Program-made: the position numbers and the translations under genes
Shown: positions 35,313 through 53,794 of the stretch, in pieces
Numbering within the stretch: the stretch's first letter is position 1
How the letters are laid out: each line of letters opens with the position of its first letter
Notes under the pieces: generated by a model
Told to the model about the DNA's origin: nothing
The model's database searches: none
The model's input: only the letters and a program-made list of their open reading frames with translations
From: Acetobacterium malicum subsp. dehalogenans DSM 11527
Lineage (GTDB): Bacteria > Bacillota > Clostridia > Eubacteriales > Eubacteriaceae
Length of the DNA: 64,000 nucleotides
Reading direction: 5' to 3'
Assembly (NCBI RefSeq): GCF_000472665.1
Contig: NZ_AXAC01000005.1
Coordinates: forward strand, 62,001-126,000

Positions 35313-36119
35313 TTACTTTGACAGCGCGCCGATTTTACCAGCCCGGTATGCTTTGCTGTACTTTCGGCAGTGCTTATCCAATCCCAACAATGCTTCGGTA
35401 GCAAAAATGGTGCCCATCATGTCACGGTTCATGGGGTCCATCACGGCTGAATCCATCCCGGCCTGAATGGCAAAAGCCAAAGCATTTCGATTAATCAGCG
35501 GCCGAATCGGCAAACCGAAAGAAATGTTACTGATGGCACCGGTGACATGAATGGTCGGAAACAGTGTTTTGATGGCGCGGATCTCTTCAACAAAATTCAG
35601 CAGCGAATGATTGTCGGTCGACAACGCCATTACACAGGGGTCGATATGAATGCGATCTTGCGAAATGCCATATCTGGCAGCTTTATCGACCATCCTTTTG
35701 GTAATGTCCAGCTTTGTCTGCAAATCGGTGGGGATGCCATTATTGTCACAGGTCAGTCCCACCACTTCCCAGCCATTGCCTTCCATCAACGGCAGCAATA
35801 CCTCGCACTTGTCGCCTTCTTCAGAAATCGAATTGAGCATCCCCGGTTTGTTGGCGTATTTGAAAACTGCTTCAATGACCCGGGGATTGGGACTGTCAAT
35901 ACACAAGGGCGTATCGGTAACATCCTGCACCACTTCCATTAACCATTTGAGGGTTTCAATTTCATATTCTGGTGCGGTACTGGCACATACATCAATGAAA
36001 TTAGCGCCGGCCTCGGTCTGTTTCACGGCCCGATCGGCGATAAAGGCTGCATCTCTTTTTTCAATGGCTTCCTTCACGGTTGGGATGGTGCCATTGATTT
36101 TTTCTCCAATAATAATCAT
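35313..36119 (-). CDS. MeTr-type methyltetrahydrofolate:corrinoid methyltransferase
   Basis: A 268-residue pterin-binding TIM barrel. Landmarks are IIIGEKINGTIPTVKEAI, GANFIDVCASTAPEYEIETLKW, PLCIDSPNPRVIEAVFKY, RIHIDPCVMALSTDNHS, GAISNISFGLPIRPLINRNAL and SAVMDPMNRDM. These fit MtgA/MtvA/AcsE-type enzymes that move methyl groups between corrinoid proteins and tetrahydrofolate. ATG 36119 follows AAGGAGA. In this island it would hand the methyl group from the corrinoid protein (39836-40462) to tetrahydrofolate. It is last in a set with CobW and MtaA-like genes. Confidence 0.88.
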   Translation of the reverse strand: MIIIGEKINGTIPTVKEAIEKRDAAFIADRAVKQTEAGANFIDVCASTAPEYEIETLKWLMEVVQDVTDTPLCIDSPNPRVIEAVFKYANKPGMLNSISEEGDKCEVLLPLMEGNGWEVVGLTCDNNGIPTDLQTKLDITKRMVDKAARYGISQDRIHIDPCVMALSTDNHSLLNFVEEIRAIKTLFPTIHVTGAISNISFGLPIRPLINRNALAFAIQAGMDSAVMDPMNRDMMGTIFATEALLGLDKHCRKYSKAYRAGKIGALSK

Positions 36120-36173
36120 CTGTGTCTCCTTGTCTTTGTTGTACATATCTATCTCTAAGCTGAATCCTTGGTT

Positions 36174-37091
36174 TTAAATACTAACCGGAGTATCTCCAAA
36201 ATAATTTTTCCAGAGTCTCAGCAAGTCACTGATCATCCGGATGCCCACTGCCGAAATCAGCACGATTTCGGTTTCTTCAACCGGTTTGATCCAGTGATTC
36301 AATACTGCAAAATCATTGACGCTGCTGACTTCAAAAACCCCCTGATCGGTTTGGACAAACCCTTTGATCCGATGGGTTGACAGTTTTATTTCATTCAAAA
36401 ATCTTTCGAATGTCTGATAATCCAGGATTTCGTCCGTTTTTAAAACATGGGTATGGGGACGGCTTTCCCAGGTATTTACGGAAGGACTGGCTGTGAACGC
36501 TGTTCTTTTCATGGTCTTGACCAGATCAGCCAATGGCACCGCGCAAAAAGACGTCTGATAGATTTCCGCTGCCGGGTTAATCCCCTTAATCTTTTCTGTG
36601 ATAACTTGAAGGGTTTCGGCATTTTGAAGATCGGCCTTATTAATAATAACCTTACTGGCATAAATGATCTGTTTTTCCAGTGCGGCGATCACGTCAACCT
36701 GTTTGAGAAAATAGCGTCCATCCACAATACAAATGGAGCCAGCATAATCATAAGCTTTACCCGTAATTTTTGTAACCGTCTCAAGAATAATCCCCATATT
36801 GGAAGGATCTGCCACTCCAGAAGATTCGACAAACACAATTTCCAATTGATGGTGTAAAAATTCCGCCAGTCCTTTGATGAAGTTTTCTTTCAGGCAGGCG
36901 CAAAAAACCGATCCGTTATTCAATTCAATCAGATCAAAATCCTCATTTTTGATCAATTGTCCGTCAATACCGGTCTCCCCAAATTCATTCATCAGAACAC
37001 CGATTTTTCGGCCCTCATATTCGATTAACAGTTTTTTCAGCATCGTGGTTTTTCCGGCACCCAAAAATCCGGTCAGTAAGATCAACTTCAT
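36174..37091 (-). CDS. CobW/COG0523 family GTPase
   Basis: A 305-residue P-loop GTPase with GFLGAGKTTML (Walker A), a conserved Cys pair in NNGSVFCACLKENF (in place of the canonical GCICC/GCLCC), ESSGVADPSNMG, and VIINKADL (NKxD). The C-terminal domain is of the CobW_C type. The family delivers metals such as Zn or Co to target enzymes, or works with corrinoids. Located between MtaA-like and MeTr-like genes, it may metallate the Zn-dependent methyltransferase. AAGGAGA precedes the ATG. Confidence 0.85.
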   Translation of the reverse strand: MKLILLTGFLGAGKTTMLKKLLIEYEGRKIGVLMNEFGETGIDGQLIKNEDFDLIELNNGSVFCACLKENFIKGLAEFLHHQLEIVFVESSGVADPSNMGIILETVTKITGKAYDYAGSICIVDGRYFLKQVDVIAALEKQIIYASKVIINKADLQNAETLQVITEKIKGINPAAEIYQTSFCAVPLADLVKTMKRTAFTASPSVNTWESRPHTHVLKTDEILDYQTFERFLNEIKLSTHRIKGFVQTDQGVFEVSSVNDFAVLNHWIKPVEETEIVLISAVGIRMISDLLRLWKNYFGDTPVSI

Positions 37092-37153: not shown

Positions 37154-38503
37154 TTATAGATATTTGCCGACCACTTCAATTAATTCCTGCTTGCTGGGAA
37201 TAATTGATGACCACTGCAGTTGGCCATTGATATAGGTGGATGGCAGGTGCTGAACGCCCATTTTTTTAGTCCGGGCAATATCCATTTTATTGGTGTATTT
37301 AAATTCTTTAATCTCAATCCGATCGCCAAACTCTTCTTCGGCCAGCAGGATTCCCTTGACCATGTAGGTACAGGCCGCACAGGTAGCTGAATCCAGGGTG
37401 AAGATTTCAATCAGCGGTTTTTCCAGCTTGTCATAATCCGGCAGATCTACGGGGATATCTTCATCCACGGCCTCATAGTTTTCGATCATTTTACGGACCG
37501 TTTCCGTTTGCTTAATGGCCTGGACAATCGCTACCGTATTATCAATCGGGACATTATAAGGCATATCACAGCCGGGGCTGACAATCAGGTTATGATGGTT
37601 GATCTGATCCAGCATGTCGACAATAAATTTCATATTGTCCTGTTGATTGCCGAACAGCAGGGTGGTTGTCAGTGGAATATTTCCGCCAATGGTAATATTG
37701 TATTGGTCGGTGATTTTCTTGGCTTCATAAATATTGACATTCTCATCAATGGAGATCCCGTCGGGATTGGTTTTACACATCACCTCCATTTGAACAGTAG
37801 CATCGCCGCAGACAAAGAAACTGCTTAAAGCCCCCTTGCTGCGAATAAAATCAAAGGCCGCCTGGAAGGGTTCCATAAACAGGGCCTCAATCGATTTCGG
37901 TGAAATCTGACTGATCAGCGGGTCAACCAGAGCAATGACATCCATCCCGGCATCAATATAGTAGCTTGACATGGCATTACACACTTCCACGCAGAATCCT
38001 ACCAGTTCTTTGACATACTCCGGATACATGACGATATCCATAAAAAATTCGCTGCCGCGGATATGGGAAGCCAGGGTGACTGGTCCGCAAATTAAACCAT
38101 AGAGAGCGGTGTCATCCCCCACTGCCGCTTTCACCCGTTTCATCACATCCACCACCATTGGAATGCGGCCGTCGGTAACTTTTGGAATCTTGCATTTGCA
38201 GGGTACTGTCAATTCACCGGCATAGGGATGGGTCATTACCGATGGCGGATTATCTTCCGCCCATAACAACTCGCAGCCAAGTATTTCTGCTTCAATTTGA
38301 AGATCGAAGATTACCGGCATCCCGTCAGGAGCATAAAGCTTGTGAACTTCCATCAATGAATCAAATAATTTATCGCCGTCGGTTAATACCTCCCGGGCTG
38401 TATACCCTTTCAGAAAACCGGCATGGACACCACTGAAAGGCACCCATGGTACCTCATTGACCGTTTCGTGTCTTAATGTCTTTAAAATTAGATCTTTTCC
38501 CAT
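37154..38503 (-). CDS. MtaA/CmuA-like (uroporphyrinogen decarboxylase family) methyltransferase fused to a thioredoxin-like domain
   Basis: 449 residues. Residues about 1-345 form the URO-D/MtaA-type barrel (VPWVPFSGVHAGFLKGYT, YGLICGPVTLASHIRGSEFFMD, GMDVIALVDPLISQISPKS, VSPGCDMPYNVP). Residues about 365-449 form a thioredoxin-like domain with the redox motif ATCAAC and a cis-Pro segment QHLPSTYING. In MtaA/MtbA the zinc is bound by HxC...C. Here the first ligand position reads FFVCGD, so the His seems to be Phe, while both Cys remain. The fusion may couple a thiol or redox step to methyl transfer. GAGGT precedes the ATG. Confidence 0.8.
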   Translation of the reverse strand: MGKDLILKTLRHETVNEVPWVPFSGVHAGFLKGYTAREVLTDGDKLFDSLMEVHKLYAPDGMPVIFDLQIEAEILGCELLWAEDNPPSVMTHPYAGELTVPCKCKIPKVTDGRIPMVVDVMKRVKAAVGDDTALYGLICGPVTLASHIRGSEFFMDIVMYPEYVKELVGFCVEVCNAMSSYYIDAGMDVIALVDPLISQISPKSIEALFMEPFQAAFDFIRSKGALSSFFVCGDATVQMEVMCKTNPDGISIDENVNIYEAKKITDQYNITIGGNIPLTTTLLFGNQQDNMKFIVDMLDQINHHNLIVSPGCDMPYNVPIDNTVAIVQAIKQTETVRKMIENYEAVDEDIPVDLPDYDKLEKPLIEIFTLDSATCAACTYMVKGILLAEEEFGDRIEIKEFKYTNKMDIARTKKMGVQHLPSTYINGQLQWSSIIPSKQELIEVVGKYL

Positions 38504-38607: not shown

Positions 38608-39492
38608 TTAATCCCGGATAGATAAAGAATCGGCATCAGCTGTTCGACTGACAAGAATTACCGCAACCAGCATCAGCCCGGCCCCGGCAATGGTATTGCC
38701 ATTCCATGGTTCGTTGTATAATAAAATACCCAGCACTAAAGTTACCACCGCCTCAAAAGCAATTATCAGTGAGGTTTGGGTCGATCCGATTCGCTTAATG
38801 GCAAAGGTGACCATCTGTAGAACAAAGATAGTAATTCCGCCCAATGCCAGGGTGAAAATGATTCCTTTAGTCGATAATGATAAAAATTCTGAATTGCCTG
38901 AAATAATCCAGCCCTGAATACCGAAAAATATGGCGCAAATCCCGCCCAGATAAAATATAATTACCCGGTTTTCAAGTTTTTTAAGGCTGCTTTGCTGGAG
39001 ACTAACCAGATAAATACCATATGCCAAGCCTGATCCCAGTGCTAATACACTGCCCATATTGATTAAATCGAAATTGAAATTCATCAGAAATAAGATCCCT
39101 ACACTGGCAATGATCAAAGCACTGATCTTCGTCTGGTTGGGTTTTTCTTTAAAAACCATGGCCATAATGACAACCACGAAAAGCGGATAAGAGAAATACA
39201 GCATGGTTGCCAATCCCATCGGCATATAATTAAAGGACCGGGCCAATAAAAAAGTGGATCCACCATATCCGACAGCCGAATAAATAAATAGTTCCAGGGC
39301 CTGTTTTTTTGTTATCGTGATCTTTTCTTTTTTTAAGATAAAGGTTAGTCCCAAGCTGATAAAAACAACGACATACCGATAAAATAAAATGGTGGTGGCA
39401 TCCAAACCATCCAGCATTAAAGCCTTGGTTAAGACCGGAATGAGACCTGCGGCCAATGCGGCTGCAACGGCTGCAATGATTCCAATTGACAT
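38608..39492 (-). CDS. EamA/DMT family transporter
   Basis: A 294-residue membrane protein with ten hydrophobic segments in two EamA repeats (SIGIIAAVAAALAAGLIPVL... and LGGITIFVLQMVTFAIKRIG...). The family exports metabolites or amino acids. AGAGGC precedes the ATG. It lies between the MtaA-like gene and repeat copy E, and the substrate is unknown. Confidence 0.85.
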   Translation of the reverse strand: MSIGIIAAVAAALAAGLIPVLTKALMLDGLDATTILFYRYVVVFISLGLTFILKKEKITITKKQALELFIYSAVGYGGSTFLLARSFNYMPMGLATMLYFSYPLFVVVIMAMVFKEKPNQTKISALIIASVGILFLMNFNFDLINMGSVLALGSGLAYGIYLVSLQQSSLKKLENRVIIFYLGGICAIFFGIQGWIISGNSEFLSLSTKGIIFTLALGGITIFVLQMVTFAIKRIGSTQTSLIIAFEAVVTLVLGILLYNEPWNGNTIAGAGLMLVAVILVSRTADADSLSIRD

Positions 39493-40484: not shown

Positions 40485-41342
40485 TTATTTAATTTCTGCC
40501 AGCAGTTTTTCCAGTTCAGCGGCTTCTTCATCGGCAATTACATAGGTGTGCACGCCATCATCTGGAAACGCACCATTTCGCACTTCGTCGCAAAATGCGG
40601 TGAATCCTTTTAATAATTCAGCCCCTACATTGGCATATTTTTTTACAAACTTAGGGGTGAAGTCATCATAATATCCAACCATATCGGCATAGATCAGTAA
40701 CTGACCATCGGTAAAGGAACCAGCGCCAATTCCCAGAACCGGAATATTCAGGCGTTCGGTGATGGCTTTACCGACCACTGCCGGAACCCCTTCAACCAAG
40801 ATAAAGGATGCCCCAGCAGCTTCAATCGCCAGCGCCTGTCGCAATAGTTCCATCGCTGCCCCGGCACTTTTACCCTGGGCTTTATAGCCGCCCATCTGCG
40901 CTGCAAACTGGGGTGTTAGTCCAATATGTCCCATCACCAGAATCCCCACATCAGAGATGGCTTTAATCCGCTGACAAACTGAATCGGTTCCACCTTCCAA
41001 TTTAATGGCATCCACCAGGGATTCTTTAGTAAACCGGCCGGCATTAAAGACCGCTTCTTCGTTGGAAATCTGATAGGACATATAGGGCATATCGCCAACA
41101 ATAAAGGTATTGGGGGCGCCCCGTCTGACAGCTGATGAATGGGCAATCATATCATCCATGGTTACCGGGAAGGTGGTTTCATAACCCAGGGTTACCATTC
41201 CCAGGGAATCCCCAACCAGAATCATATCCACGCCGGCCCGTTCTTCATATTTGGCAGTTAAATAATCGTAGCCGGTAATGTATACAATTTTCTCTTTCTT
41301 CTCTGCCATTTCTCTAAAATTAATAATACTTTTTTTCATCAT
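40485..41342 (-). CDS. Second PanB-like ketopantoate hydroxymethyltransferase
   Basis: A 285-residue PanB homologue, clearly different from the one at 1509. Active-site features are kept: [34 protein letters not shown] and LGIGAGS, so methylene-tetrahydrofolate-dependent chemistry is expected. Its place between an opine-type dehydrogenase and a corrinoid protein, under a sigma-54 promoter, argues for a catabolic or specialised role rather than coenzyme A synthesis. It could run in reverse, giving methylene-tetrahydrofolate and a 2-oxo acid. Nomenclature as PanB is by homology only. Confidence 0.88.
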   Translation of the reverse strand: MMKKSIINFREMAEKKEKIVYITGYDYLTAKYEERAGVDMILVGDSLGMVTLGYETTFPVTMDDMIAHSSAVRRGAPNTFIVGDMPYMSYQISNEEAVFNAGRFTKESLVDAIKLEGGTDSVCQRIKAISDVGILVMGHIGLTPQFAAQMGGYKAQGKSAGAAMELLRQALAIEAAGASFILVEGVPAVVGKAITERLNIPVLGIGAGSFTDGQLLIYADMVGYYDDFTPKFVKKYANVGAELLKGFTAFCDEVRNGAFPDDGVHTYVIADEEAAELEKLLAEIK

Positions 41343-41389
41343 TCGCTCCTTAGTGTTTTATTATTTTCTCTACAGACCAGTCTTTTTTT

Positions 41390-41441
41390 AAGACCATCCA
41401 CCATCGCACGCTCGTAAAGCGTGCGAACGGTTGAGGGTCTT
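41390..41441. other. Double inverted repeat between PanB2 and the dehydrogenase gene
   Basis: An outer stem AAGACC / GGTCTT encloses an inner stem CGCACGC / GCGTGCG. It lies in the 145-base gap of the operon on the minus strand and lacks a U-tract on that strand, so mRNA processing or stabilisation is more likely than termination. Confidence 0.6.
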
Positions 41442-41487
41442 GGTTTATTTTATTTTAAGGGGTGGCTGAGGAATATAAAGGGGAAAA

Positions 41488-42705
41488 CTATTTCAGTTTT
41501 CCGATTCTTAAATAATCGTTTAGTTCTTCTTTGCTCATGTTGTCAATACCAATGTATTCCAGAGTATAGCCATTGGCGGTCAGGTCTCGGCCCAGGATGG
41601 CACAGGCCAGACTGATCATTGAGTCAACAACCGGAGTCTTGACCCCATAGACATCACCCAGTTGCTGATACACATAACAGCCGACGGGAATATCTTCGGT
41701 AATGTAACGGTTTTCCATGGTAAATGGACCGGTACCGTATTGGATCGGATCCTGTTTATCAAAGGGAATCAGGTAATCCAGTCCCATGTATTCCTGACCG
41801 AGGACGTTTTCCCGGGAAAAGAAATGCTCTTTCTCATAGGGTTGAATGCCCACTCCGATCGTTTCTGCCAAAGTACATTCTTCCTGATAGAAGGTGTATT
41901 GAACCTGGGAAATGGATGGACAATAGGCGTGGGAATAAATTGAGAATTTAAATTTATCTTCACCAAAAATGGTACCAAAGTTCTCCATCGTCGAGACCCC
42001 AAGAATTGCTCCCGGACAGTGCAGCACCGGATTAACATTAGAGAATCCAGTATCTAAAACGGTATCCCCGGCAACGGCACCTTCACCTTCAGTCACGGCG
42101 TCCATTGACGGCAGGTATTTAGAACTTTCGATAAAGGCCGCGGTATCCGTAGCTGGCATGGCGGCCCCACGTAGGGTAATGGCCCGATAATAGACCCGGA
42201 TTTTATGCGTAATCACGCCACCCGGCATTTCCACCCGGCTGCCATAGGTTGAGCTTGACCAGCCACCGACGATGACATTTTTGGTACAGCCAGCTTCCCG
42301 CATCATTTTGCGCAAAATCAAACTGCCAAAATTGTCGGGAAAAATATGTATGACCTGTCCGTCTTCCAGACAGGGGATCAGTTTTTCAAAAAAAGGTTTA
42401 TGTCCAAAAGTTGGGGTGGCAATTACAATGATACCAGCCCCTTTAACTGCTTCTGCCACATCGGTGGTAACCTTATCCATTTTTGCAAAGCCTTCTCGTT
42501 CAAAGCCATAAAGATTAACTTGCTCGCCAAAGAATTTGATCCCAACTTTTTCCACATTTTTTAGTGTTTTTTCAGCGAAAGGTTCAAAGTCACAAATCCT
42601 GACTTTTGCTCCGCCTAATGCACAGTCTCCGGCAATCGCCTTGCCAACTGCACCAGCCCCTAATACTGCAATGGGCTTGTCTTTTAAATAACTCATGTCT
42701 GCCAT
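41488..42705 (-). CDS. NAD/NADP octopine/nopaline (opine) dehydrogenase family protein
   Basis: 405 residues. The Rossmann domain starts KPIAVLGAGAVGKAIAGDCALGGAKVRICD, and a C-terminal opine-dehydrogenase-type helical domain contains the segments GAMPATDTAAF, GFSNVNPVLHCPGAILG and SIYSHAYCPS. The segment NVNPVLHCPG with its His matches the catalytic region of the family. Family members join or split an amino acid and a 2-oxo acid, or act as ketopantoate-reductase-like enzymes. ATG 42705 follows AAGGAGA. It is the first gene after a sigma-54 promoter and is followed by PanB2 and the corrinoid protein. Confidence 0.85.
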   Translation of the reverse strand: MADMSYLKDKPIAVLGAGAVGKAIAGDCALGGAKVRICDFEPFAEKTLKNVEKVGIKFFGEQVNLYGFEREGFAKMDKVTTDVAEAVKGAGIIVIATPTFGHKPFFEKLIPCLEDGQVIHIFPDNFGSLILRKMMREAGCTKNVIVGGWSSSTYGSRVEMPGGVITHKIRVYYRAITLRGAAMPATDTAAFIESSKYLPSMDAVTEGEGAVAGDTVLDTGFSNVNPVLHCPGAILGVSTMENFGTIFGEDKFKFSIYSHAYCPSISQVQYTFYQEECTLAETIGVGIQPYEKEHFFSRENVLGQEYMGLDYLIPFDKQDPIQYGTGPFTMENRYITEDIPVGCYVYQQLGDVYGVKTPVVDSMISLACAILGRDLTANGYTLEYIGIDNMSKEELNDYLRIGKLK

Positions 42706-42768: not shown

Positions 42769-42784
42769 AGCAAGGTTCATGCCA
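42769..42784 (-). promoter_or_regulatory. Sigma-54 promoter of the dehydrogenase-PanB2-corrinoid operon
   Basis: On the minus strand the sequence reads TGGCAT-N5-TTGCT, the same variant as at the acetoin operon. The predicted start is near 42758, about 50 bases before the dehydrogenase ATG. Confidence 0.85.
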
Positions 42785-43155: not shown

Positions 43156-44814
43156 TTACTCTTTTTTATCTTTTTTATTGTCTTTTTGTTTTTCCAGGGT
43201 ATACCATTTTTTATGAATATGCGTGTCCGCAAGTTCAGCTTCGGCCTCAGCGGCAGCTGCAGCCACTTCACCATCCATAAAATCGGCATATTCCAGTTCA
43301 TCCCGCTTTAGTTTGCCGGAAAACAAATGATACAGGAAGCCGAGAATCATTGCCAATTCAATAAAGAGAATGGGGAAACCGGCAATGGTTTTAACGATCT
43401 TGATGCCGTCAATCCCGCCGCTGATGACAAAAACCAGCGAAATTAAACCGATAAAGACGCCCCAGAAAACTTTGATTGGCAGCGGCGCTTCTTTGACACC
43501 TTTGGACTGTTTTAATGACATGGTCGAGATCGTCGATGTCATCGAATCTGCCAGGGTAATGAATGATAAACCGATGGTTACCAGCATAATGATGCGAATT
43601 AATTCGGTGAATGGCAAAAATTCAAAGATATACATCATAAACGCCTGGGCCCCATTATCAGCCAGGAATCCTGACATATCGGCAACGCCTCTTAATTGAA
43701 GGTCTAAAGCCAGGCCGCCAAAAATACTGAACCATAAAATGCCGAACATGGCTGGCAGAATAACATTGACGGTAATAAACTCGCGAATGGTCCGGCCATA
43801 GGATAATTTAACTAGGAATAAACCAACAATTGGTCCAAAGGATAACCAGTCAACCATCCAGTACATATCCCACCATTGGGGCCATAGATCACTGTCAACA
43901 ATTGGTTGGGTGAATAAGCTCAAATCAACAAAGTTATTGACAAAATATCCAAATGATTGGGTAAACAGATTAAAGATATAGGCTGTAGGTCCGCAAACCA
44001 GGACAAAAATCATCAGGGCAATAAAGATCCAGGCATTTTTATCACTTAGCCAGGCAATTCCACGGTCAAGACCGGTTGCACTTGAGATGGTGTAAGAGGT
44101 AATGATCACTGCTGCGATAATCGCCCAGACAAAGGGTCCCGGTTCAATACCAAATACGAAATTCAGCCCACTGCCGATCTGGAGCAATCCGTAACCCAGA
44201 GAACCGGCAACACCACCGCAGATAGCAAATAAGATAATCCCATCAATGATTGTATTAATCTTGGAATTCAGCTCTTTGCCATCATTCAGATAAACAAGAC
44301 CGGCACTGGCGGTATAGCTTTTGTTCATGTTATAGTAGGCATAACCAATGGTGATCCCTGCTACCGCATAAATGGAATAAGGTGAAAATGACCAATGCAG
44401 AAAGGACTTGCTCATTCCCCAGATGACTGCATCTAAACTGCCTGGTTCTAACCCGACTGATGGCGGTGGCGTAAAGGTATGCATGAGTGGTTCGGTGGCG
44501 CCCCAGAAAACAATCCCGGTTCCGATCCCGGCGCAAAGGGAAATAGCCCACCAGATCCAGGTTTTGTACTTGGGTAATGCATCTTTCCCTCCAAATTTAA
44601 TACTCCCGAAGGGATGTACAAATAGTAATACCATACAGCCAACAAAAATTAATACGCCGATGGAAACCATCCATCCGGCATTTTCCATTAATGCAATAAA
44701 GAAATCGGTCATAATGGTTGTAAACTGTTCGGGAACAATGAAGCCAATAATCAGAATGATACCCATTAACACAATTGGAATCGCAACTGGAACAATACGT
44801 ATTCGCTTTAACAT
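43156..44814 (-). CDS. BCCT family transporter
   Basis: A 552-residue transporter with about 12 membrane segments, of the betaine/carnitine/choline family (IIGFIVPEQFTTIMTDFFIALMENAGW, LHWSFSPYSIYAVAGITIGYAYYN, WWDMYWMVDWLSFGPIVGLFLVKLSYGRTIREF). By eye, the aromatic substrate cage is altered compared with glycine-betaine carriers: PW is PY in the fourth helix region, and the YWxWWxSW motif reads YWMVDWLSF. A substrate other than glycine betaine is therefore plausible. AGGAGGAG precedes the ATG. It has its own sigma-54 promoter, divergent from the MttB operon. Confidence 0.93.
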   Translation of the reverse strand: MLKRIRIVPVAIPIVLMGIILIIGFIVPEQFTTIMTDFFIALMENAGWMVSIGVLIFVGCMVLLFVHPFGSIKFGGKDALPKYKTWIWWAISLCAGIGTGIVFWGATEPLMHTFTPPPSVGLEPGSLDAVIWGMSKSFLHWSFSPYSIYAVAGITIGYAYYNMNKSYTASAGLVYLNDGKELNSKINTIIDGIILFAICGGVAGSLGYGLLQIGSGLNFVFGIEPGPFVWAIIAAVIITSYTISSATGLDRGIAWLSDKNAWIFIALMIFVLVCGPTAYIFNLFTQSFGYFVNNFVDLSLFTQPIVDSDLWPQWWDMYWMVDWLSFGPIVGLFLVKLSYGRTIREFITVNVILPAMFGILWFSIFGGLALDLQLRGVADMSGFLADNGAQAFMMYIFEFLPFTELIRIIMLVTIGLSFITLADSMTSTISTMSLKQSKGVKEAPLPIKVFWGVFIGLISLVFVISGGIDGIKIVKTIAGFPILFIELAMILGFLYHLFSGKLKRDELEYADFMDGEVAAAAAEAEAELADTHIHKKWYTLEKQKDNKKDKKE

Positions 44815-44971: not shown

Positions 44972-44987
44972 CGCAAGCTTTATGCCA
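44972..44987 (-). promoter_or_regulatory. Sigma-54 promoter of the BCCT gene
   Basis: On the minus strand the sequence reads TGGCAT-N5-TTGCG. The GG and GC cores are at exact spacing. The predicted start is near 44961, giving a leader of about 147 bases. Confidence 0.75.
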
Positions 44988-45413: not shown

Positions 45414-45429
45414 TGGCACAATACTTGCT
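45414..45429 (+). promoter_or_regulatory. Sigma-54 promoter of the racemase-MttB operon
   Basis: TGGCAC-N5-TTGCT is a perfect consensus match. The predicted start is near 45441, about 50 bases before the first ATG. Confidence 0.92.
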
Positions 45430-45491: not shown

Positions 45492-46271
45492 ATGCAAAGA
45501 GATTTAGGAATTAACTACATGACCACCCGGAAAAATCATACCTGTTATGGAATGGGTATTGGAATTATGGTATTAGACGATGCCTATCCCGGTTTTCCTG
45601 GCGATGTCCGTAATGCCAGTGCCTGGGGTTTTCCAATCCAGTATGAAATCGCTCAAGGGGTAGACAACTATACCCTGGTCTGGGAACAAGATAAAACCCC
45701 CTGTCGTGCCCCCATTGTCCAAGCCGCAAAAAACCTGGAACGAATGGGTTGTAAGGCAATCGCTGCCGAATGTGGCTACTTCGCTTATTTCCAGCAGGAT
45801 GTTGCCGCTGCTGTTGATATTCCGGTTTTCATGTCCAGTCTGCTGCAGGTTCCCTTTATTCAGCAAACCATCGGACCTAAAAATGCGGTTGGCATCATCT
45901 GTGCCCAAAAACGTTTCCTGACCGATACCCATCTGGAAAAAGTCGGTATTGACCTGAACAGTAATTTTTACATTGCCGGTGCCCAGGATGAATATGGCTG
46001 TCCGCAGTTTGACACCCTTTGGGATCATGAAAAACGGCCTGAAATTCCTGAGAGTTACTATGATGAATCAGAAAAGGATATGATTCGCATTACTAAAGAA
46101 TTCATCGCTAAATACCCCGATATTAAAGCAATTATGTTGGAATGTACCGGAATGCAGCCTTTTGCCCGGGCCATCCAACGGGCCGTAGATTTACCGGTAT
46201 TCAGCTGGGGAACCTTGCTGGATTATGCTTACTCCTGTGTTTCTCATCGTGATTACTATGGTGATATCTAA
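45492..46271 (+). CDS. Aspartate/glutamate/hydantoin racemase family protein
   Basis: A 259-residue protein with two Cys-containing motifs typical of the family: AIAAECGYFAYFQ (about residue 95) and IMLECTGMQPFA (about residue 217), flanked by PVFMSSLLQVPFIQ. Members include amino acid racemases, maleate isomerase and arylmalonate decarboxylase, so the reaction cannot be fixed. AGGAGGAAG precedes the ATG. As first gene of a sigma-54 operon with two MttB proteins, it probably acts on the chiral substrate or on the demethylated product. Confidence 0.82.
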   Translation: MQRDLGINYMTTRKNHTCYGMGIGIMVLDDAYPGFPGDVRNASAWGFPIQYEIAQGVDNYTLVWEQDKTPCRAPIVQAAKNLERMGCKAIAAECGYFAYFQQDVAAAVDIPVFMSSLLQVPFIQQTIGPKNAVGIICAQKRFLTDTHLEKVGIDLNSNFYIAGAQDEYGCPQFDTLWDHEKRPEIPESYYDESEKDMIRITKEFIAKYPDIKAIMLECTGMQPFARAIQRAVDLPVFSWGTLLDYAYSCVSHRDYYGDI

Positions 46272-46328: not shown

Positions 46329-47759
46329 ATGAAACCATATGAAAAATATGTATCAAAAGAAGATATCCAAATTATCCACGCGGAATCGCTAAGAATTCTC
46401 AGCGAAATTGGCGTTAAATTCGAACATCCTGAAATATTGGATATTTTTAAAAATCACGGCGCCCGGGTTGTTGGCGAAACCGTCTTTTTAGATGAAAAAA
46501 TGATCATCAATGCTATTTCAACCATTCCGGAAACTTTCACTATCGAAAACTCCAAAGGAAACCATACCCTTGGCGGCGGTAGTCTGATTTTAATGCCTGG
46601 GATCGGAAACATTTTCCGCCTGGAACATGGTCATCTTCATAAAATGACCAATGATGATGCCGTGGATCAGTTTAAGCTGTCCGACACCAGCGACGTTATC
46701 AATTGTAACTACTTTAATATTTTTCTCGATGACAAAGGCCTGTCCCTGGATGAACGGGTCTTCAGTCCCATCGCCATGATTTTAAAATATTCCAATAAAA
46801 CGGCCTTGCATTTACAGGCCAACACCTTCCCGTTAAAATCAAACATGCGAGAATCTTTTAAAAAAGGTTTGGAACTAATTGAAAAATTTGAAGGTCGTAG
46901 TGGTGTTTACAATAATATTGTCCACGTCAATTCCTTGTCACCTTTATGCTTTGACCATGATCCGCTGGAAAAATTCCTGATTGCCGCTGACATGAATCAG
47001 CCGGTCTGGTTCAGCCCCTGTGCGATGCCAGTCCTCACCGGACCGCCTTCAGTGGCCGGGCTGATTGCGATGACCAATGCTGAAGTTTTGGCCGGAATGG
47101 TCATGTCCCAGCTGGTCAAACCGGGTTTGCCGGTGGTTTATGGCCAGACCTCGGCTTCCACCAACCTGCGCACCGTCCAATTGAGCATTGGCGCGCCTGA
47201 AACCGCTTTGATTTCTTATGCCACCCGGGGACTGGCTGATTTTTACAAGCTACCATGTCGCACCGGAGGCGGTTTAAGTGATGCTAAAGATTTTGATATG
47301 CAGGCCGGGATTGAGTCGGATATGATGATTCGCTCGACCCTTGAAGCGGCTCCCGATCTGGTTCTCCATTCCTGTGGAATCATGGGCAGCTTTAACATCT
47401 TAAGTTTTGAAAAATTCCTGATGGACGAAGATACTTATCGGATGAATCGCCGTCTATTAAAAGGAATTAAAACGGAAGAAAGCTACCTTTGTCATGATCT
47501 GATTGCCAAAATCGGACCCCGGGGTAACTTCCTTCAGGGCCGAACTCCGAAGATGTTCAAAGAAGAATTCTTTGTTCCCAAATACTTCAATAAAGAAGAT
47601 CCTAACCAATGGCAGGAAAATGGCAGCAAACCGGTTCTAAGCGATGTCCAGGCCGCTGTCCAAGAACGTCTGGCTTCCTATACGCCACCAGACATTACCA
47701 AAGAACAGGCTAAACTGCTGGAAGACTATATCCCAGTTTGCTATCGCGAACGTATTTAA
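46329..47759 (+). CDS. MttB superfamily methyltransferase, non-pyrrolysine (1)
   Basis: A 476-residue TIM-barrel methyltransferase of the trimethylamine methyltransferase family. Landmarks are HAESLRILSEIGVKFEHPEIL, GIGNIFRLEHGHL, GPPSVAGLIAMTNAEVLAGMVMSQLVKPGLPVVYG and GGGLSDAKDFDMQAGIESDMM. The frame contains no in-frame TAG, so it belongs to the non-pyrrolysine group, whose studied members demethylate quaternary amines such as glycine betaine, proline betaine or carnitine. Its methyl acceptor would be the corrinoid protein at 39836. AAGGGG lies before the ATG. It is followed by a paralogue 30 bases on. Confidence 0.92.
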   Translation: MKPYEKYVSKEDIQIIHAESLRILSEIGVKFEHPEILDIFKNHGARVVGETVFLDEKMIINAISTIPETFTIENSKGNHTLGGGSLILMPGIGNIFRLEHGHLHKMTNDDAVDQFKLSDTSDVINCNYFNIFLDDKGLSLDERVFSPIAMILKYSNKTALHLQANTFPLKSNMRESFKKGLELIEKFEGRSGVYNNIVHVNSLSPLCFDHDPLEKFLIAADMNQPVWFSPCAMPVLTGPPSVAGLIAMTNAEVLAGMVMSQLVKPGLPVVYGQTSASTNLRTVQLSIGAPETALISYATRGLADFYKLPCRTGGGLSDAKDFDMQAGIESDMMIRSTLEAAPDLVLHSCGIMGSFNILSFEKFLMDEDTYRMNRRLLKGIKTEESYLCHDLIAKIGPRGNFLQGRTPKMFKEEFFVPKYFNKEDPNQWQENGSKPVLSDVQAAVQERLASYTPPDITKEQAKLLEDYIPVCYRERI

Positions 47760-47789: not shown

Positions 47790-49205
47790 ATGGAAACCAC
47801 ACAAAGAAATATTGAATTCAATGTATTAAATAAAAATAAAATCGAAACCATTCACGAAAAAAGCATGGATCTGCTGGAAAACTTCGGAATGCGCGTCGTT
47901 GGCGCCCGAACCATCGATTTGCTTAAAAAATATGGCTGTACCGTTGATGGCGATCTGGTTAAATTCCCCAAAGCGGTTGTTGATAAAGCCTTGAACACCA
48001 TTCCCAAAGAATTGACCTTATATACCCGAGACGGCAAACCTAATATGATCATCAACAGCAAAAACAATGTCTATTTCGGAACCCATTCCGATCAACTGGA
48101 GATCCTTGATCACAAAACCAATATGGCCCGCCCCTATCTGAAGGCGGACATTAAAAATATGTGCAAACTAGGCAGCTATCTATCCAACATCAGCTTTATT
48201 CTGTCAGTGGGGATGTGTGCTGATGTGGATCCATTGGTCCAATCTCAGGTGACCTTTATTGAAACCCTGAAAAACTTTGATAAAACCATCAATTTTTCCA
48301 CCAATGACATCGAATCCCTTCAGGAGATCATCGACATCGCTGCCGTTGTTGCTGGTGGACACAAAGAACTGGCTGAAAAACCCTTTATCTTTAACTACTG
48401 TGAACCGATTCCGCCGCTGACCCATCCGGTCGAAAGTACTGAAAAACTTTTTATCAGTGCCACCAACAAAATTCCGGTTGTTTATATGCCTTACAGCATG
48501 ATGGGGGGCACCTCTCCGATTACCATCGCCGGTGCCTTAACCCAGAATAACGCCGAAATTTTAGCCGGTGTGGTCATTACCCAGGCCGTTAATGAAGGCG
48601 CTCCGCTGATTTACGGTTCGATGCCAACGGTGTTTGATATGCAAACCACCATCGGTTCCTATGGTGCCCCTGAATTCCATAAGTCGGTGGCAGCTGCTTC
48701 GGAACTGGCAGACTATTATAACCTGCCCTTCTACGGCACGGCCGGTTGCAGCGATGCCAAAACCGTCGATCCCCAATCCATTGCGGAGGTCCAAATGGAA
48801 CTCTTCTCGTCCATTTTAAGCAAGGCCAACATCGTTCACGATATTGGTGTATTGGATCACTGTAACTCGGTGGCACCCGCGATGGTGGTATTGGCCAATG
48901 AAATGATCAATGAGCTATCGGCCTACTCCAGCGGTGTCGAAGTGAACGAGGAAACCCTGGCCATGGATGTTATCAAAGGTGTTGGGCATGGCGGTCACTA
49001 CCTTAATGAAATGCACACCCTCAGTAATTTCAGAAGCGTTTGGTATCCGGAATTCTTTAAACGGCGAATGGTTAATCCCGATCAGTCCGATATTCTCGAA
49101 ATGGTCAATGCAAAAATTGATACGATTCTTGAAACCCACGAGGTCCCCCCATTAGAAGCTTCAATCCTGGCTGAGATTGAAAAAATCGAAAAAAATTACC
49201 AGTAA
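47790..49205 (+). CDS. MttB superfamily methyltransferase, non-pyrrolysine (2)
   Basis: A 471-residue paralogue of the preceding gene, collinear over its length: IHEKSMDLLENFGMRVVGARTIDLL, PVVYMPYSMMGGTSPITIAGALTQNNAEILAGVVITQA, PLIYGSMPTVFDMQTTIGSYGAPE, GTAGCSDAKTVDPQSIAEVQ, GVGHGGHYL. It has no internal TAG. The two proteins are diverged enough to suggest different substrates or successive demethylations, or a heteromer. AAGGAG precedes the ATG. A terminator follows. Only one corrinoid protein is found nearby, so both may share it. Confidence 0.92.
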   Translation: METTQRNIEFNVLNKNKIETIHEKSMDLLENFGMRVVGARTIDLLKKYGCTVDGDLVKFPKAVVDKALNTIPKELTLYTRDGKPNMIINSKNNVYFGTHSDQLEILDHKTNMARPYLKADIKNMCKLGSYLSNISFILSVGMCADVDPLVQSQVTFIETLKNFDKTINFSTNDIESLQEIIDIAAVVAGGHKELAEKPFIFNYCEPIPPLTHPVESTEKLFISATNKIPVVYMPYSMMGGTSPITIAGALTQNNAEILAGVVITQAVNEGAPLIYGSMPTVFDMQTTIGSYGAPEFHKSVAAASELADYYNLPFYGTAGCSDAKTVDPQSIAEVQMELFSSILSKANIVHDIGVLDHCNSVAPAMVVLANEMINELSAYSSGVEVNEETLAMDVIKGVGHGGHYLNEMHTLSNFRSVWYPEFFKRRMVNPDQSDILEMVNAKIDTILETHEVPPLEASILAEIEKIEKNYQ

Positions 49206-49328: not shown

Positions 49329-50783
49329 GTGAAAGTAAAAAACGAGCACATTTTGGAAGCTTTTGGCGAAAATTCTTTCCCGATTCAGGATGTTGAGCGG
49401 ATCGAAGATGTGTGCATTCATGTTGTTGATGCCAATGGAAAAATCGTCTGCTACTCCAAGGGCTGCGAAATTATCGAAAACATGAAGCATGAAGATGTTA
49501 TCGGTAAAAACATGTCTGATATTTATGATTATCTTGAAAACGAATCCATGGAATCTCTGGTTTTGAAAACCGGAAAAAAAGTTCAGGATGTCCATGTCAA
49601 ATATACATCACCTTCCGGAAAGGTTGCTGATGTCATCAGCAGTACTTACCCGGTTTTTTCAAAAACAGATCCCCATAAGGTTGAAGCAGCCATCTGTATT
49701 TACCGGGATATTTCCGACTATATTCATATGGCCAATACCATTAATAAACTACAGAACGATCTGAAATCCCAGCAACTGAAAAATAATGGTACCCAATTTA
49801 CCTTTAAAGATATTATCGGCACCAGTGCCCATATGGCTGAATGTGTTCGTCATGCGGAAATCGCTGCGCAAACCACCGCGCCGATCCTGATCGCCGGACC
49901 CACTGGTACTGGTAAAGAGGTTTTTGCCCAAAGCATTCACAATGCCAGTCCCCAGGCCAATAAACTTTTTGTGGCCATCAATTGTAGTGCAATCCCTGAA
50001 AACCTTCTGGAGAGCACCTTGTTCGGCACCGTCAAAGGTTCTTTTACCGGTGCGGTTGATTCCGTGGGGCTATTGGAAACCGCAGAGGGAGGCACCATTT
50101 TTCTCGATGAGATCAACTCCATGCACATGGGACTGCAATCCAAGCTGTTACGGGTACTGGAAACTGGCAAATATCGGAAGGTCGGCGGCCATAAAGAAAT
50201 AACAGCCAATATTCGCCTGCTCAGCGCCTTGAACCAGGATCCGCTAAAAGCCATTGAAGAAAAACGACTGCGCTCTGATTTATACTACCGGCTGGCCGTC
50301 TTCTCCATTCACTTACCACCATTAAAAGACCGTAAACAGGATATTCTGGATCTGGTACCGGCATTCCTTTCCACCGAAGGGTCGGCCATGGGAAAACAGC
50401 TGTTTAAGGTATCTGATGAAGCCCAGGAAATTCTGCTCTGCCATGACTGGCCAGGAAATATCCGGGAGTTAAAGCACGCTATTACTCACGCCATTTATAT
50501 TGCTCAATATCAGGATACGATTCTGACGCCAGACTTACTACCGGCTTATTTGAGGAAAAATATTTCCGATAAAAAGATCTATGAAAAATACTTATCCGCC
50601 AGCATTGATGATAAAAATTTAAAAAACACCTTAAGTAAGATCGAGAAACAAATGATTATCGATGTTTTGCAGGCCAATGATCATAACATTTCGAAAAGCG
50701 CCAGAGACCTGGGTATATCACGGCAGAATTTGCAATATAAGATCCGACTGCACGGTATTAAAGATGCCGATGGTGAGCTATAA
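49329..50783 (+). CDS. Sigma-54-dependent activator with PAS domain (RocR/MttR-like)
   Basis: 484 residues. An N-terminal PAS domain (about 20-125, DVCIHVVDANGKIVCYSKGCEII) precedes an AAA+ domain with Walker A GPTGTGKE, sigma-54 loop GSFTGA and Walker B GGTIFLDEINSM, and a Fis-type helix-turn-helix (NISKSARDLGISRQNLQYKIRL). The start is a GTG, eight bases after GGAG. Located right behind the MttB operon, it is the natural activator for the three sigma-54 promoters at 42769, 44972 and 45414. The ligand is presumably the methylated amine or a breakdown product. Confidence 0.92.
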   Translation: MKVKNEHILEAFGENSFPIQDVERIEDVCIHVVDANGKIVCYSKGCEIIENMKHEDVIGKNMSDIYDYLENESMESLVLKTGKKVQDVHVKYTSPSGKVADVISSTYPVFSKTDPHKVEAAICIYRDISDYIHMANTINKLQNDLKSQQLKNNGTQFTFKDIIGTSAHMAECVRHAEIAAQTTAPILIAGPTGTGKEVFAQSIHNASPQANKLFVAINCSAIPENLLESTLFGTVKGSFTGAVDSVGLLETAEGGTIFLDEINSMHMGLQSKLLRVLETGKYRKVGGHKEITANIRLLSALNQDPLKAIEEKRLRSDLYYRLAVFSIHLPPLKDRKQDILDLVPAFLSTEGSAMGKQLFKVSDEAQEILLCHDWPGNIRELKHAITHAIYIAQYQDTILTPDLLPAYLRKNISDKKIYEKYLSASIDDKNLKNTLSKIEKQMIIDVLQANDHNISKSARDLGISRQNLQYKIRLHGIKDADGEL

Positions 50784-52485: not shown

Positions 52486-52717
52486 GTCTCAATTTCTATT
52501 TTATATACACGCACTGCGGCGCTGCCTGGAAATTTCTTAGGTAATACGTCCTAATTTCAGGTTTTTCTTAAGGAACCGTTTATTTACCATTTTATGTGGT
52601 ATGATTAAAACAGTGCATATCGAACTACCTTTATTCTCAAACACATTAAGAACATTTAATTGAATCGTTTGTCTTGTAAAGAACTTGTTCTTGTCACGTG
52701 AAAGGAGTGCAAACTCT

Positions 52718-53794
52718 ATGAAAGAAAAAGCTTTACTCTACTGTGAAGGTCAATTTGGTGAATCCGATGGAAAGACTGCCAATGGTTTAATCCGACGTTC
52801 CCAAAAATACCATATCACATGTGTAATAGACAGCACCAAGACAGGCCTGGATGCCGGAAAAATATTGGAAGGGGTTGACAATGGTATCCCCATCTATCGT
52901 GATTTATCCGAAGCCATGGATCAATTAAGCGAGGTTCCCAAATATTTTATTTATGGTATCGCCCCAAAGGAAGCCATCCTATCTACCAAAGAACGACGAA
53001 TTTTTCTCAAGGCGATGTCTTTGGGGATGGATATCGTCAATGGTCTTCATGAATTTATTTCTGAAGATTCTGAATTTAAACAACAGGCCAAGCGCTATCG
53101 GGTTAAGTTATATGATATCCGAAAGCCACTTGCCAATCGCTACCTTCATCTTTTTACTGGTGATATTTTAAATGTAAAGACCCCCAAAATCGCCATCCTC
53201 GGGACCGATTGTGCCGTAGGCAAACGAACTACCGCGATGCTGCTGATTGCCGCTTTAAAAGAACGAGGACTTCGGGCCAGCTTTATCGGTACTGGTCAGA
53301 CCTCATTAATTCAGGGAGAAAAATACGGGATTGCCCTGGATGCCATTCCCTCTGAATTTATGACTGGCGAATTGGAAAATGCCGTTGTCGAAGCCAATAT
53401 TCACGAAAAACCGGACGTGATTATACTGGAAGGACAAGGCGCCCTCAGCCATCCGGCTTTTATCAGCTCCTGCGCCATTATCCGCGGCGGAAAGCCGGAT
53501 GGTATCATTGTTCAACATCCTCCCAAACGAGTAAACCGGGTCGATTTCGATTATCTGCCAATGCCCACCCTCTCCAGCGAAATTGAACTCATCGAACGCT
53601 TCTCAGAATCCAAGGTTATTGCGATCACAATCAATCATGATGATATGAATGAAAATGAAGTGGCCGATACCATTAAGGCTTATGAGCAAAACTATCAGCT
53701 ACCCACCACGGACACCCTGTTCCATGGCTGTAACAAGCTGATCAAGGCTGTTTTAGAGGCCTTTCCTGAATTACAAGAAAAAACTACCCACTAA
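52718..53794 (+). CDS. DUF1611 P-loop protein (possible DgcN-like N-acyltransferase)
   Basis: 358 residues. A Rossmann-like N-terminal half precedes a P-loop domain with LGTDCAVGKRTTAMLL (near residue 165), FIGTGQTSLIQG, and VIILEGQGALSHPAF. The family is DUF1611. As I recall, one member, DgcN, acylates D-glutamate in a D-amino-acid catabolic route. The partner epimerase-like DgcA is not in the window, so the role here is open. ATG 52718 follows AAAGGAG. It is divergent from the TetR gene. Confidence 0.8.
   Translation: MKEKALLYCEGQFGESDGKTANGLIRRSQKYHITCVIDSTKTGLDAGKILEGVDNGIPIYRDLSEAMDQLSEVPKYFIYGIAPKEAILSTKERRIFLKAMSLGMDIVNGLHEFISEDSEFKQQAKRYRVKLYDIRKPLANRYLHLFTGDILNVKTPKIAILGTDCAVGKRTTAMLLIAALKERGLRASFIGTGQTSLIQGEKYGIALDAIPSEFMTGELENAVVEANIHEKPDVIILEGQGALSHPAFISSCAIIRGGKPDGIIVQHPPKRVNRVDFDYLPMPTLSSEIELIERFSESKVIAITINHDDMNENEVADTIKAYEQNYQLPTTDTLFHGCNKLIKAVLEAFPELQEKTTH

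What the first reader, a model, noticed from the sequence alone, without database searches (positions are those of the whole stretch)
40485..42705. PanB2 plus opine-type dehydrogenase may run pantoate chemistry backwards to feed the Wood-Ljungdahl pathway
A complete pan set (reductase, panB, panC, panD) already exists at 0.6-3.9 kb. A second PanB with all active-site motifs sits next to a Rossmann dehydrogenase under a sigma-54 promoter with a corrinoid protein. A dehydrogenase plus retro-PanB would turn a hydroxymethylated hydroxy acid (for example pantoate) into a 2-oxo acid and methylene-tetrahydrofolate, directly usable by an acetogen. No catabolic PanB is known to me.
Basis: inference. 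Interest (0 to 1): 0.75.

Follow-up and report, generated by a model that had tools for sequence, protein, structure and literature searches.

The report
Betaine-degradation cluster with second PanB
An acetogen carries a second copy of a vitamin-B5 enzyme that sits in a widespread gene set for breaking down a methylated amino acid, where it probably works backwards to cut off a one-carbon unit.

Summary
In detail: PanB2 (40485-41342) and an opine-type dehydrogenase (ODH, 41488-42705) lie beside a corrinoid protein behind a sigma-54-type site, and a separate panB-panC operon exists. The pair is conserved: 16 of 67 genomes of the order have both, always adjacent. Nine of these have no other PanB, and eight of the nine show no PanC, so PanB2 is not there for vitamin synthesis. 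In a 124-protein tree all 37 ODH-locus PanBs fall on one side and all panC-linked ones on the other. Catalytic residues are unchanged, but two pocket positions differ. Neighbours are MttB demethylases, PLP-independent racemases and betaine transporters; in a few relatives PanB sits by Fhs or FolD. Pantoate is not: ODH is nearest to opine dehydrogenases, and no ketopantoate reductase, VOR, Buk or Ptb was seen in 44 ODH loci. I propose N-methylated homoserine (homoserine betaine or the DGTS head group): demethylation, racemisation, ODH to 4-hydroxy-2-oxobutyrate, retro-PanB to pyruvate plus methylene-THF. Substrate and direction are inferred, not shown. A pantoate-type PanB cluster exists in another genome (L246).

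The parts
40485..41342 (-). PanB2, non-biosynthetic PanB subfamily; proposed retro-aldol 4-hydroxy-2-oxoacid:THF hydroxymethyltransferase
41488..42705 (-). ODH, opine-type (PF02317) dehydrogenase; proposed oxidation of a D-configured N-methyl amino acid to a 2-oxo acid plus amine
   Evidence: start codon
39836..40462 (-). corrinoid protein of the MtgC/MtbC type
42770..42784 (-). sigma-54-type site TGGC-N7-TTGC upstream of ODH-PanB2-corrinoid
   Evidence: motif upstream of ODH in 30 of 48 copies
43156..44814 (-). BCCT betaine-type transporter
44973..44987 (-). sigma-54-type site upstream of BCCT
45414..45428 (+). sigma-54-type site upstream of the racemase-MttB operon
45492..46271 (+). RacL, Asp/Glu-racemase-fold protein with conserved cysteines; proposed PLP-independent racemase
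46329..47759 (+). MttB_a, non-pyrrolysine MttB-family methyltransferase
47790..49205 (+). MttB_b, non-pyrrolysine MttB-family methyltransferase
49329..50783 (+). sigma-54-dependent activator (PrdR-like, below that model's cut-off)
38608..39492 (-). EamA-family transporter
37154..38503 (-). MtaA/URO-D-type methyltransferase with C-terminal thioredoxin-like domain
36174..37091 (-). CobW-family GTPase
35313..36146 (-). methyl-THF:corrinoid-type methyltransferase (Pterin_bind)

Best explanation
The two divergent operons encode uptake and breakdown of an N-methylated amino acid whose carbon skeleton carries a 4-hydroxyl, most likely homoserine betaine (trimethylhomoserine) or a derivative such as the head group of the betaine lipid DGTS. 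BCCT imports it. MttB_a and MttB_b move methyl groups to the corrinoid protein and on to THF. RacL inverts the alpha carbon from L to D without PLP. ODH oxidises the remaining N-methyl amino acid to 4-hydroxy-2-oxobutyrate plus an amine. PanB2, run in the retro direction, cuts this into pyruvate and methylene-THF, both direct inputs to acetogenesis. Shown by sequence: gene content, conservation, shared sigma-54 motifs, the separate PanB subfamily, PanB2 without PanC, and the changed pocket with intact catalysis. Inferred: the direction of PanB2, each enzyme's substrate, and homoserine betaine itself. A retro, catabolic role of PanB2 on some substrate I put at about 0.78; the confidence below is for this whole reading with a homoserine skeleton (lowered from 0.5 after one search showed that the best homoserine clue comes from a genome without ODH).
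For: (1) PanB2 without vitamin synthesis: of 16 genomes with ODH and PanB2, 9 have no second PanB; 8 of these 9 have no PanC match and one (G046) has a partial one; the other 7 have a second PanB directly beside PanC. One of the eight (G045) is only 80% complete. (2) Tree of 124 PanBs: a branch with SH-aLRT 96 puts 37 of 37 PanBs from ODH loci on one side (68 rows) and 32 of 32 panC-linked ones, plus L226 beside PanC, on the other. (3) The seven catalytic positions are identical in 68 of 68 side-B and 32 of 32 panC-linked PanBs, but the positions of E. coli I212 and V214 are L and I in 37 of 37 ODH-locus PanBs (25 and 26 of the 31 other side-B rows) against V/I and V in 32 of 32 panC-linked ones; I212A and V214G variants of E. 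coli PanB change the range of accepted oxo acids and aldehydes (PMC7610986, passages). (4) In the 44 ODH >=64% loci: MttB in 35, PanB 32, racemase 32, sigma-54 activator 30, against 1, 0, 1 and 5 in the 36 lower-identity loci. Of the 12 PanB misses one is adjacent after all (L123) and ten more genomes have a side-B PanB elsewhere; so have 3 of 3 further ODH genomes, G216, G278 and G397. (5) The racemases are of PLP-independent types: RacL/RacS with conserved cysteines, or a proline-racemase-family protein with both catalytic cysteines in six of six full-length cases. N-methyl amino acids cannot use PLP racemases or transaminases (established chemistry), which fits racemase plus opine dehydrogenase. 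(6) ODH's best fold match is N-(1-D-carboxylethyl)-L-norvaline dehydrogenase (TM 0.85 by target, 0.73 by query), which makes a D centre; this gives a racemase a role. (7) Fhs and FolD follow PanB in a Synergistales ODH operon (L108); FolD and Fhs flank the only side-B PanB found in the genome of L098 (L285), and Fhs lies by those of L099 and L165 (L279, L286). (8) Homoserine: in G548 a related module (BCCT, MttB, RacL, MttB, methionine-gamma-lyase-like protein, GlpK, MttB, side-B PanB) follows glpABC, which fits glycerol-linked trimethylhomoserine. Homoserine betaine is a known free osmolyte (PMC5864184, PMC13403184, passages).
Against: No enzyme was assayed. Fhs/FolD proximity does not fix direction, since those enzymes are reversible, and it was seen in only a few clusters (Fhs or FolD in 3 of 44 ODH loci). 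The homoserine clue rests on G548, whose genome has no ODH at E<=1e-20; there a PLP enzyme would need complete demethylation first, and a true methionine gamma-lyase would give 2-oxobutyrate, not 4-hydroxy-2-oxobutyrate. That protein scores 521.0 bits, below the model's cut-off of 549.7. A second such gene near PanB (L200) has no MttB beside it. Gene content is uneven: 12 of 44 ODH loci have no racemase and 9 no MttB in the held DNA; in three loci RacL and the proline-racemase protein occur together (L106, L107, L161). Two further ODH regions hold no PanB: L243 (82%, 20 kb, with MttB and RacL) and L244 (64%, 13 kb, with neither). AcnX and RacS in L070, L071, L074 and L269 are unexplained. RacL orthologues (>=67%) were found in 5 of 398 genomes: 3 have ODH, while G548 and G701 have none, and G701 has no PanB beside RacL (L271). 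The genome of L102 has only side-A PanBs. G046 keeps a partial PanC. E. limosum demethylates gamma-butyrobetaine only once (PMC8604678, passages), so skeleton breakdown would be unusual.
Confidence: 0.42

Rival explanations
1. Pantoate catabolism: ODH oxidises pantoate to ketopantoate and PanB2 releases 2-oxoisovalerate and methylene-THF.
For: ODH shares its fold class with ketopantoate reductases (rank 7 and many below). PanB2 keeps all catalytic residues. A cluster of exactly this logic exists in another genome: KPR, PanB, Buk, Ptb, Buk, VOR subunits and a C45-family hydrolase-type protein, with weak Liv-type transport genes nearby (L219/L246).
Against: That cluster's PanB is on the other side of the tree. 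ODH matches no panE model at E<=0.001. No gene like the KPR, VOR, Buk or Ptb references in 44 ODH loci. Pantoate needs neither MttB demethylases nor a betaine transporter. Pocket positions that are constant or nearly so in panC-linked PanBs are changed.
Confidence: 0.1
2. A different N-methylated 4-hydroxy-2-amino acid, not with a homoserine skeleton, feeds the same ODH and retro-PanB steps.
For: The chemistry argument fixes only an N-methyl group and a hydroxymethyl on C3 of the 2-oxo acid. Transporters vary among relatives: BCCT, OpuA-type ABC, Liv-type ABC, TRAP.
Against: Homoserine betaine is the simplest such compound and is known in nature; I know of no other abundant one (recall, no search).
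Confidence: 0.26
3. PanB2 and ODH are a spare or replacement pantothenate-synthesis pair working in the forward direction.
For: PanB2 passes the panB equivalog cut-off. Nine genomes have PanB2 as their only PanB; one of them has a partial PanC.
Against: Eight of those nine have no PanC match, so pantoate would have no known use. Side B of the tree holds no panC-linked PanB. The genes share sigma-54 motifs with betaine genes.
Confidence: 0.06
4. PanB2 runs forward in catabolism, adding methylene-THF to the 2-oxo acid that ODH makes, as a carbon sink or to form an excreted product.
For: Direction cannot be read from sequence; Fhs/FolD neighbours fit either direction.
Against: An anaerobe would spend reduced C1 units with no obvious gain (inference); I saw no gene for a hydroxymethylated product that recurs in the clusters listed.
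Confidence: 0.12

Closest known systems
Biosynthetic ketopantoate hydroxymethyltransferase PanB (E. coli 1M3U, M. tuberculosis 1OY0)
   Same: Same family, similar length and all seven catalytic residues.
   Different: Separate side of the tree, no panC linkage, swapped pocket residues, present in genomes without a PanC match.
CENDH and other opine dehydrogenases (1BG6, octopine dehydrogenase 3C7A)
   Same: Same Pfam domain and fold; aligned His236 and Asp345 conserved.
   Different: About 25% identity to 1BG6; proposed to run in the oxidative direction on an N-methyl amino acid, inside a betaine-type cluster.
Quaternary-amine demethylation systems of Eubacterium limosum (MtyB, MtcB, MtpB with MtqC)
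   Same: Non-pyrrolysine MttB proteins, corrinoid protein, THF methylation (PMC8604678, passages).
   Different: gamma-Butyrobetaine is reported to be demethylated once; this cluster adds racemase, dehydrogenase and PanB for the carbon skeleton.
Serine hydroxymethyltransferase
   Same: Works like it: cleaves a hydroxymethyl group from a metabolite onto THF (recalled).
   Different: Unrelated family; uses PLP and an amino acid rather than a metal ion and a 2-oxo acid (recalled).

Membership tests
Biosynthetic PanB | Sequence above the curated panB cut-off | tested here: met
   309.6 bits against 207.55
Biosynthetic PanB | Catalytic and metal residues (E. coli D45, S46, D84, K112, E114, H136, E181; list recalled, aligned) | tested here: met
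   present in PanB2 and in 68 of 68 side-B PanBs
Biosynthetic PanB | Groups with panC-linked PanBs | tested here: not met
   opposite side of a branch with SH-aLRT 96; 0 panC-linked rows among 68
Biosynthetic PanB | Occurs with the rest of the pathway (PanC) | tested here: not met
   8 of 9 genomes whose only PanB is PanB2 have no PanC match; the ninth has a partial one
Biosynthetic PanB | Forward activity on 2-oxoisovalerate | not testable with these tools
   needs enzyme assay
Opine dehydrogenase (PF02317) | Octopine_DH helical domain after a Rossmann domain | tested here: met
   101.3 bits against 30; best fold match 1BG6, TM 0.85 by target
Opine dehydrogenase (PF02317) | Catalytic His-Asp pair (CENDH His202/Asp297, recalled) | tested here: met
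   aligned H236 and D345 invariant in 29 ODHs
Opine dehydrogenase (PF02317) | Acts on an N-alkyl amino acid | not testable with these tools
   needs enzyme assay
Ketopantoate reductase PanE | Match to panE/apbA models | tested here: not met
   no such family among NCBIfam or Pfam matches at E<=0.001
Ketopantoate reductase PanE | Fold nearest to ketopantoate reductases | tested here: not met
   six opine-dehydrogenase chains rank first; first ketopantoate reductase is rank 7, ahead of several other opine dehydrogenases
MttB-type betaine demethylation system | Non-pyrrolysine MttB, corrinoid protein and THF/corrinoid methyltransferase together | tested here: met
   open MTTB frames without in-frame stop, corrinoid protein, Pterin_bind methyltransferase
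MttB-type betaine demethylation system | Demethylates a quaternary amine | not testable with these tools
   needs assay or growth test

The most novel reading that the evidence does not exclude
A whole PanB subfamily, spread over anaerobic Bacillota, Desulfobacterota and Synergistota, is catabolic: it cleaves 4-hydroxy-2-oxo acids onto THF. In the window it completes an undescribed anaerobic pathway that turns homoserine betaine (and possibly the betaine-lipid head group) into acetogenic C1 units and pyruvate.
Probability: 0.36. Interest if true: 0.82.

Novelty: new variant of a known kind. Interest (0 to 1): 0.7.

Why it matters
PanB proteins are named as vitamin-B5 synthesis by default (PanB2 itself passes that model), so genomes with several PanBs, or a PanB without PanC, are misread. 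A catabolic PanB would be an enzyme family, beside serine hydroxymethyltransferase, that feeds C1 units from organic substrates into THF. It would also give a route for breaking down homoserine betaine and perhaps the head group of DGTS, for which a 2023 review says enzymes that break the ether bond have not been identified (PMC9892843, passages). The steps are testable in cultured Acetobacterium and Eubacterium strains.

Tried and rejected
Pantothenate synthesis by PanB2 was rejected on genome content and tree. Pantoate catabolism in this cluster was judged unlikely from ODH class and missing partner genes, although such a cluster exists elsewhere (L246). The idea that neighbouring proline-racemase proteins are hydroxyproline dehydratases was rejected: in six of six full-length ones the second catalytic position is Cys, not Thr (the Thr rule is recalled; three more are truncated at contig ends). 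A tetronate route for side-B PanBs beside DtnK, PdxA or LarA-type genes (L198, L220) remains open and was not followed. Two neighbour families (about 420 and 325 aa) gave no Pfam match and no useful solved-structure match. Literature searches for homoserine betaine degradation, trimethylhomoserine demethylation, catabolic PanB or pantoate fermentation listed no such report; the library is open-access only and most listed papers were seen only as listings. Word searches in the choline, DCMF and chloromethane papers found no opine, hydroxymethyltransferase, racemase or homoserine in the main text. A search on pantothenate need of E. limosum and passages of two papers gave no statement on it; PMC4814558 passages on PanB side reactions were not used.

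Limits of the sampling: one search kept the best 80 of 91 relatives. The panC-linked reference PanBs lean to high scorers, since one search returned loci only for its 30 best hits; the 40 further PanB regions were picked by me from multi-copy or low-scoring hits. The tree left out one PanB under 240 aa (L108, frame broken) and nine ODH-locus PanBs that repeat named loci. In one search one contig is counted twice (L161 and L270, judged by equal contig length and gene order). Absence of KPR, VOR, Buk and Ptb rests on BLAST with reference proteins from L206 and L219 at E<=1e-8 in the held DNA only.
Full report
OBSERVATION. The window lies in a 4.05 Mb genome of an acetogen whose nearest named relatives by this cluster include Acetobacterium wieringae (98% ODH identity) and Eubacterium callanderi (91%). 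PanB2, ODH and the corrinoid protein lie side by side on the minus strand. A sigma-54-type site TGGC-N7-TTGC lies just upstream of ODH, another upstream of BCCT and a third upstream of the divergent RacL-MttB_a-MttB_b operon. The window has 10 such sites against 3.2 expected, a count reached by 1 of 100 shuffles. Across 49 loci the exact motif lies within 300 bases upstream of ODH in 30 of 48 copies, of BCCT in 17 of 29 and of RacL in 13 of 30, but of MttB_a, MttB_b and the corrinoid gene in 0 of 42, 0 of 48 and 0 of 29; random stretches give 102 of 4900 (one contig counted twice). So the transporter, the racemase-MttB operon and the ODH-PanB2 operon look like one regulon, with the sigma-54 activator at 49329-50783.

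PANB2 IS NOT THE VITAMIN ENZYME. In 67 genomes of the order, ODH orthologues (>=89% identity) occur in 16 and PanB2 orthologues (>=76%) in the same 16, always adjacent. Seven of the 16 also have a PanB directly beside a PanC. The other nine have PanB2 alone; eight have no PanC match and one (G046) has a partial PanC. The eight include three single-contig genomes of 100% estimated completeness (G036, G042, G043) and one of 80% (G045). In a quick maximum-likelihood tree of 124 PanBs (no bootstraps, midpoint root), one branch with SH-aLRT 96 separates 68 rows that include all 37 PanBs from ODH loci from 56 rows that include all 32 panC-linked ones; L226, which also lies beside PanC, is on the second side. 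The seven catalytic positions do not vary in the 68 and 32 rows compared. The positions of E. coli I212 and V214 are L and I in 37 of 37 ODH-locus PanBs, and V or I and V in 32 of 32 panC-linked ones; the other 31 side-B rows have L in 25 and I in 26. E. coli PanB variants at I202, I212 and V214 accept other oxo acids or aldehydes (PMC7610986, passages read).

THE WIDER MODULE. A pattern-based search of a one-genome-per-species collection with an ODH alignment gave 91 relatives, of which the best 80 were kept. The 44 with ODH >=64% identity hold MttB in 35, a PanB in 32, a racemase in 32, a sigma-54 activator in 30 and a BCCT or OpuA-type transporter in 23; the 36 lower-identity loci hold these in 1, 0, 1, 5 and 6. 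L123 is a 33rd PanB case. The genomes of all 12 loci scored as lacking PanB have a PanB somewhere; side-B type PanBs, judged by nearest relative, are present in 11 of the 12 and absent from that of L102. Three further ODH genomes seen outside one search are G216, G278 and G397: the ODH regions read for the first two hold no PanB (L243, L244; that of G397 was not read), but each of the three has a side-B PanB elsewhere. By record titles the loci come from Bacillota, Desulfobacterota (Desulfosarcina, Desulfoluna) and Synergistota. No gene like the PanC, KPR, VOR, Buk or Ptb references lies in any of the 44. RacL orthologues (>=67%) were found in 5 of 398 genomes of the phylum: the window's, G749 and G814 with ODH and PanB, G548 with a side-B PanB but no ODH, and G701 with neither seen.

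CHEMISTRY. RacL has the Asp/Glu-racemase fold (model pLDDT 81.7; best matches glutamate, hydantoin and aspartate racemases) and cysteines conserved in the family. In six loci without RacL a proline-racemase-family protein with both catalytic cysteines appears (L113, L116, L119, L120, L124, L163); in three both occur (L106, L107, L161). Both are PLP-independent types. N-methylated amino acids cannot form the usual PLP aldimine (established chemistry), so a PLP-free racemase and an amine-oxidising dehydrogenase are what such a substrate would need. ODH's nearest solved relative makes N-(1-D-carboxylethyl)-L-norvaline; in reverse it would need the D form, which would explain a racemase acting on an L substrate (inference). 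PanB requires a 2-oxo acid with a hydroxymethyl group on C3. The simplest N-methylated amino acid that gives one is N-methylhomoserine, yielding 4-hydroxy-2-oxobutyrate, and retro-PanB then gives pyruvate and methylene-THF. Homoserine betaine is the major solute of Trichodesmium (PMC5864184, passage) and is found dissolved in reef and seagrass water (PMC13403184, passages); DGTS carries the same group (PMC9892843, passages). In genome G548 a related module with RacL, three MttBs and a side-B PanB includes a methionine-gamma-lyase-like protein and glycerol kinase and follows glpABC, which suggests a glycerol-linked homoserine. But G548 has no ODH: there full demethylation and a PLP enzyme might replace it. 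This is one case.

DIRECTION. In a Synergistales operon the order is ODH, RacS, TRAP transporter, PanB (frame broken in the assembly), formate-THF ligase, FolD. In the genome of L098 PanB lies between FolD and Fhs, and in those of L099 and L165 near Fhs. Among the 124 tree PanBs, Fhs or FolD was seen near 2 of 68 on side B, 2 of 24 non-panC rows on side A and 0 of 32 panC-linked rows; the panC-linked rows were seen with only about 1.5 kb of flank, so this last count is not a fair comparison. In a non-acetogen these two enzymes would turn methylene-THF into formate and ATP. They are reversible, so this supports but does not prove the retro direction.

A SECOND CATABOLIC PANB TYPE. Independently of ODH, 40 regions around extra or low-scoring PanBs, picked by me, were read. 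One cluster (L219/L246) has KPR, PanB, butyrate kinase, phosphate butyryltransferase, butyrate kinase, VOR subunits and a C45-family protein, as expected for pantothenate or pantoate fermentation to isobutyrate. Another (L206) has TRAP, Fhs, FolD, PanB and KPR.

VERDICT. The catabolic retro-PanB idea is well supported; pantoate is replaced by an N-methylated 4-hydroxy amino acid, best guess homoserine betaine. All substrate assignments are inferences.

Noticed in passing
G000:C35:166004-166744 (L080:9423-10331): A third, distant PF02548 protein (130 bits; 81 bits to panB against a cut-off of 207.55) with no assigned role; similar weak hits occur in other genomes of the order.
   Followed up: partly
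window 37154-38503: MtaA/URO-D-type methyltransferase carries a C-terminal thioredoxin-like domain (Pfam match just below cut-off); its homologues in eight fetched relatives are 69-94% identical.
   Followed up: no
L070:12359-14845, L269:16914-20000, L102:4738-7226: Aconitase-X and a second racemase (RacS) lie in the ODH-PanB2 cluster of some genomes; role unexplained.
   Followed up: partly
L246:10626-19506: Apparent pantoate-to-isobutyrate operon: KPR, PanB, Buk, Ptb, Buk, VOR subunits, with a C45-family hydrolase that could split pantothenate.
   Followed up: partly
G516 (several contigs): One genome with six PanB-family matches; other Bacillota have three or four, many beside TRAP transporters or dehydratases.
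   Followed up: partly
L200:4944-6206, L203:2775-3752: Two recurrent PanB-neighbour protein families (about 420 and 325 aa) with no Pfam match at E<=1e-5.
   Followed up: partly
L109:11289-12311: An ornithine-cyclodeaminase/mu-crystallin-family protein directly follows ODH in a locus without RacL.
   Followed up: no
G063, G064, G066: Genomes of one genus with two or more PanBs and no PanC match.
   Followed up: no
window 52685-53794: DgcN-like protein (162 bits, below the cut-off of 480) a few genes from the cluster.
   Followed up: no
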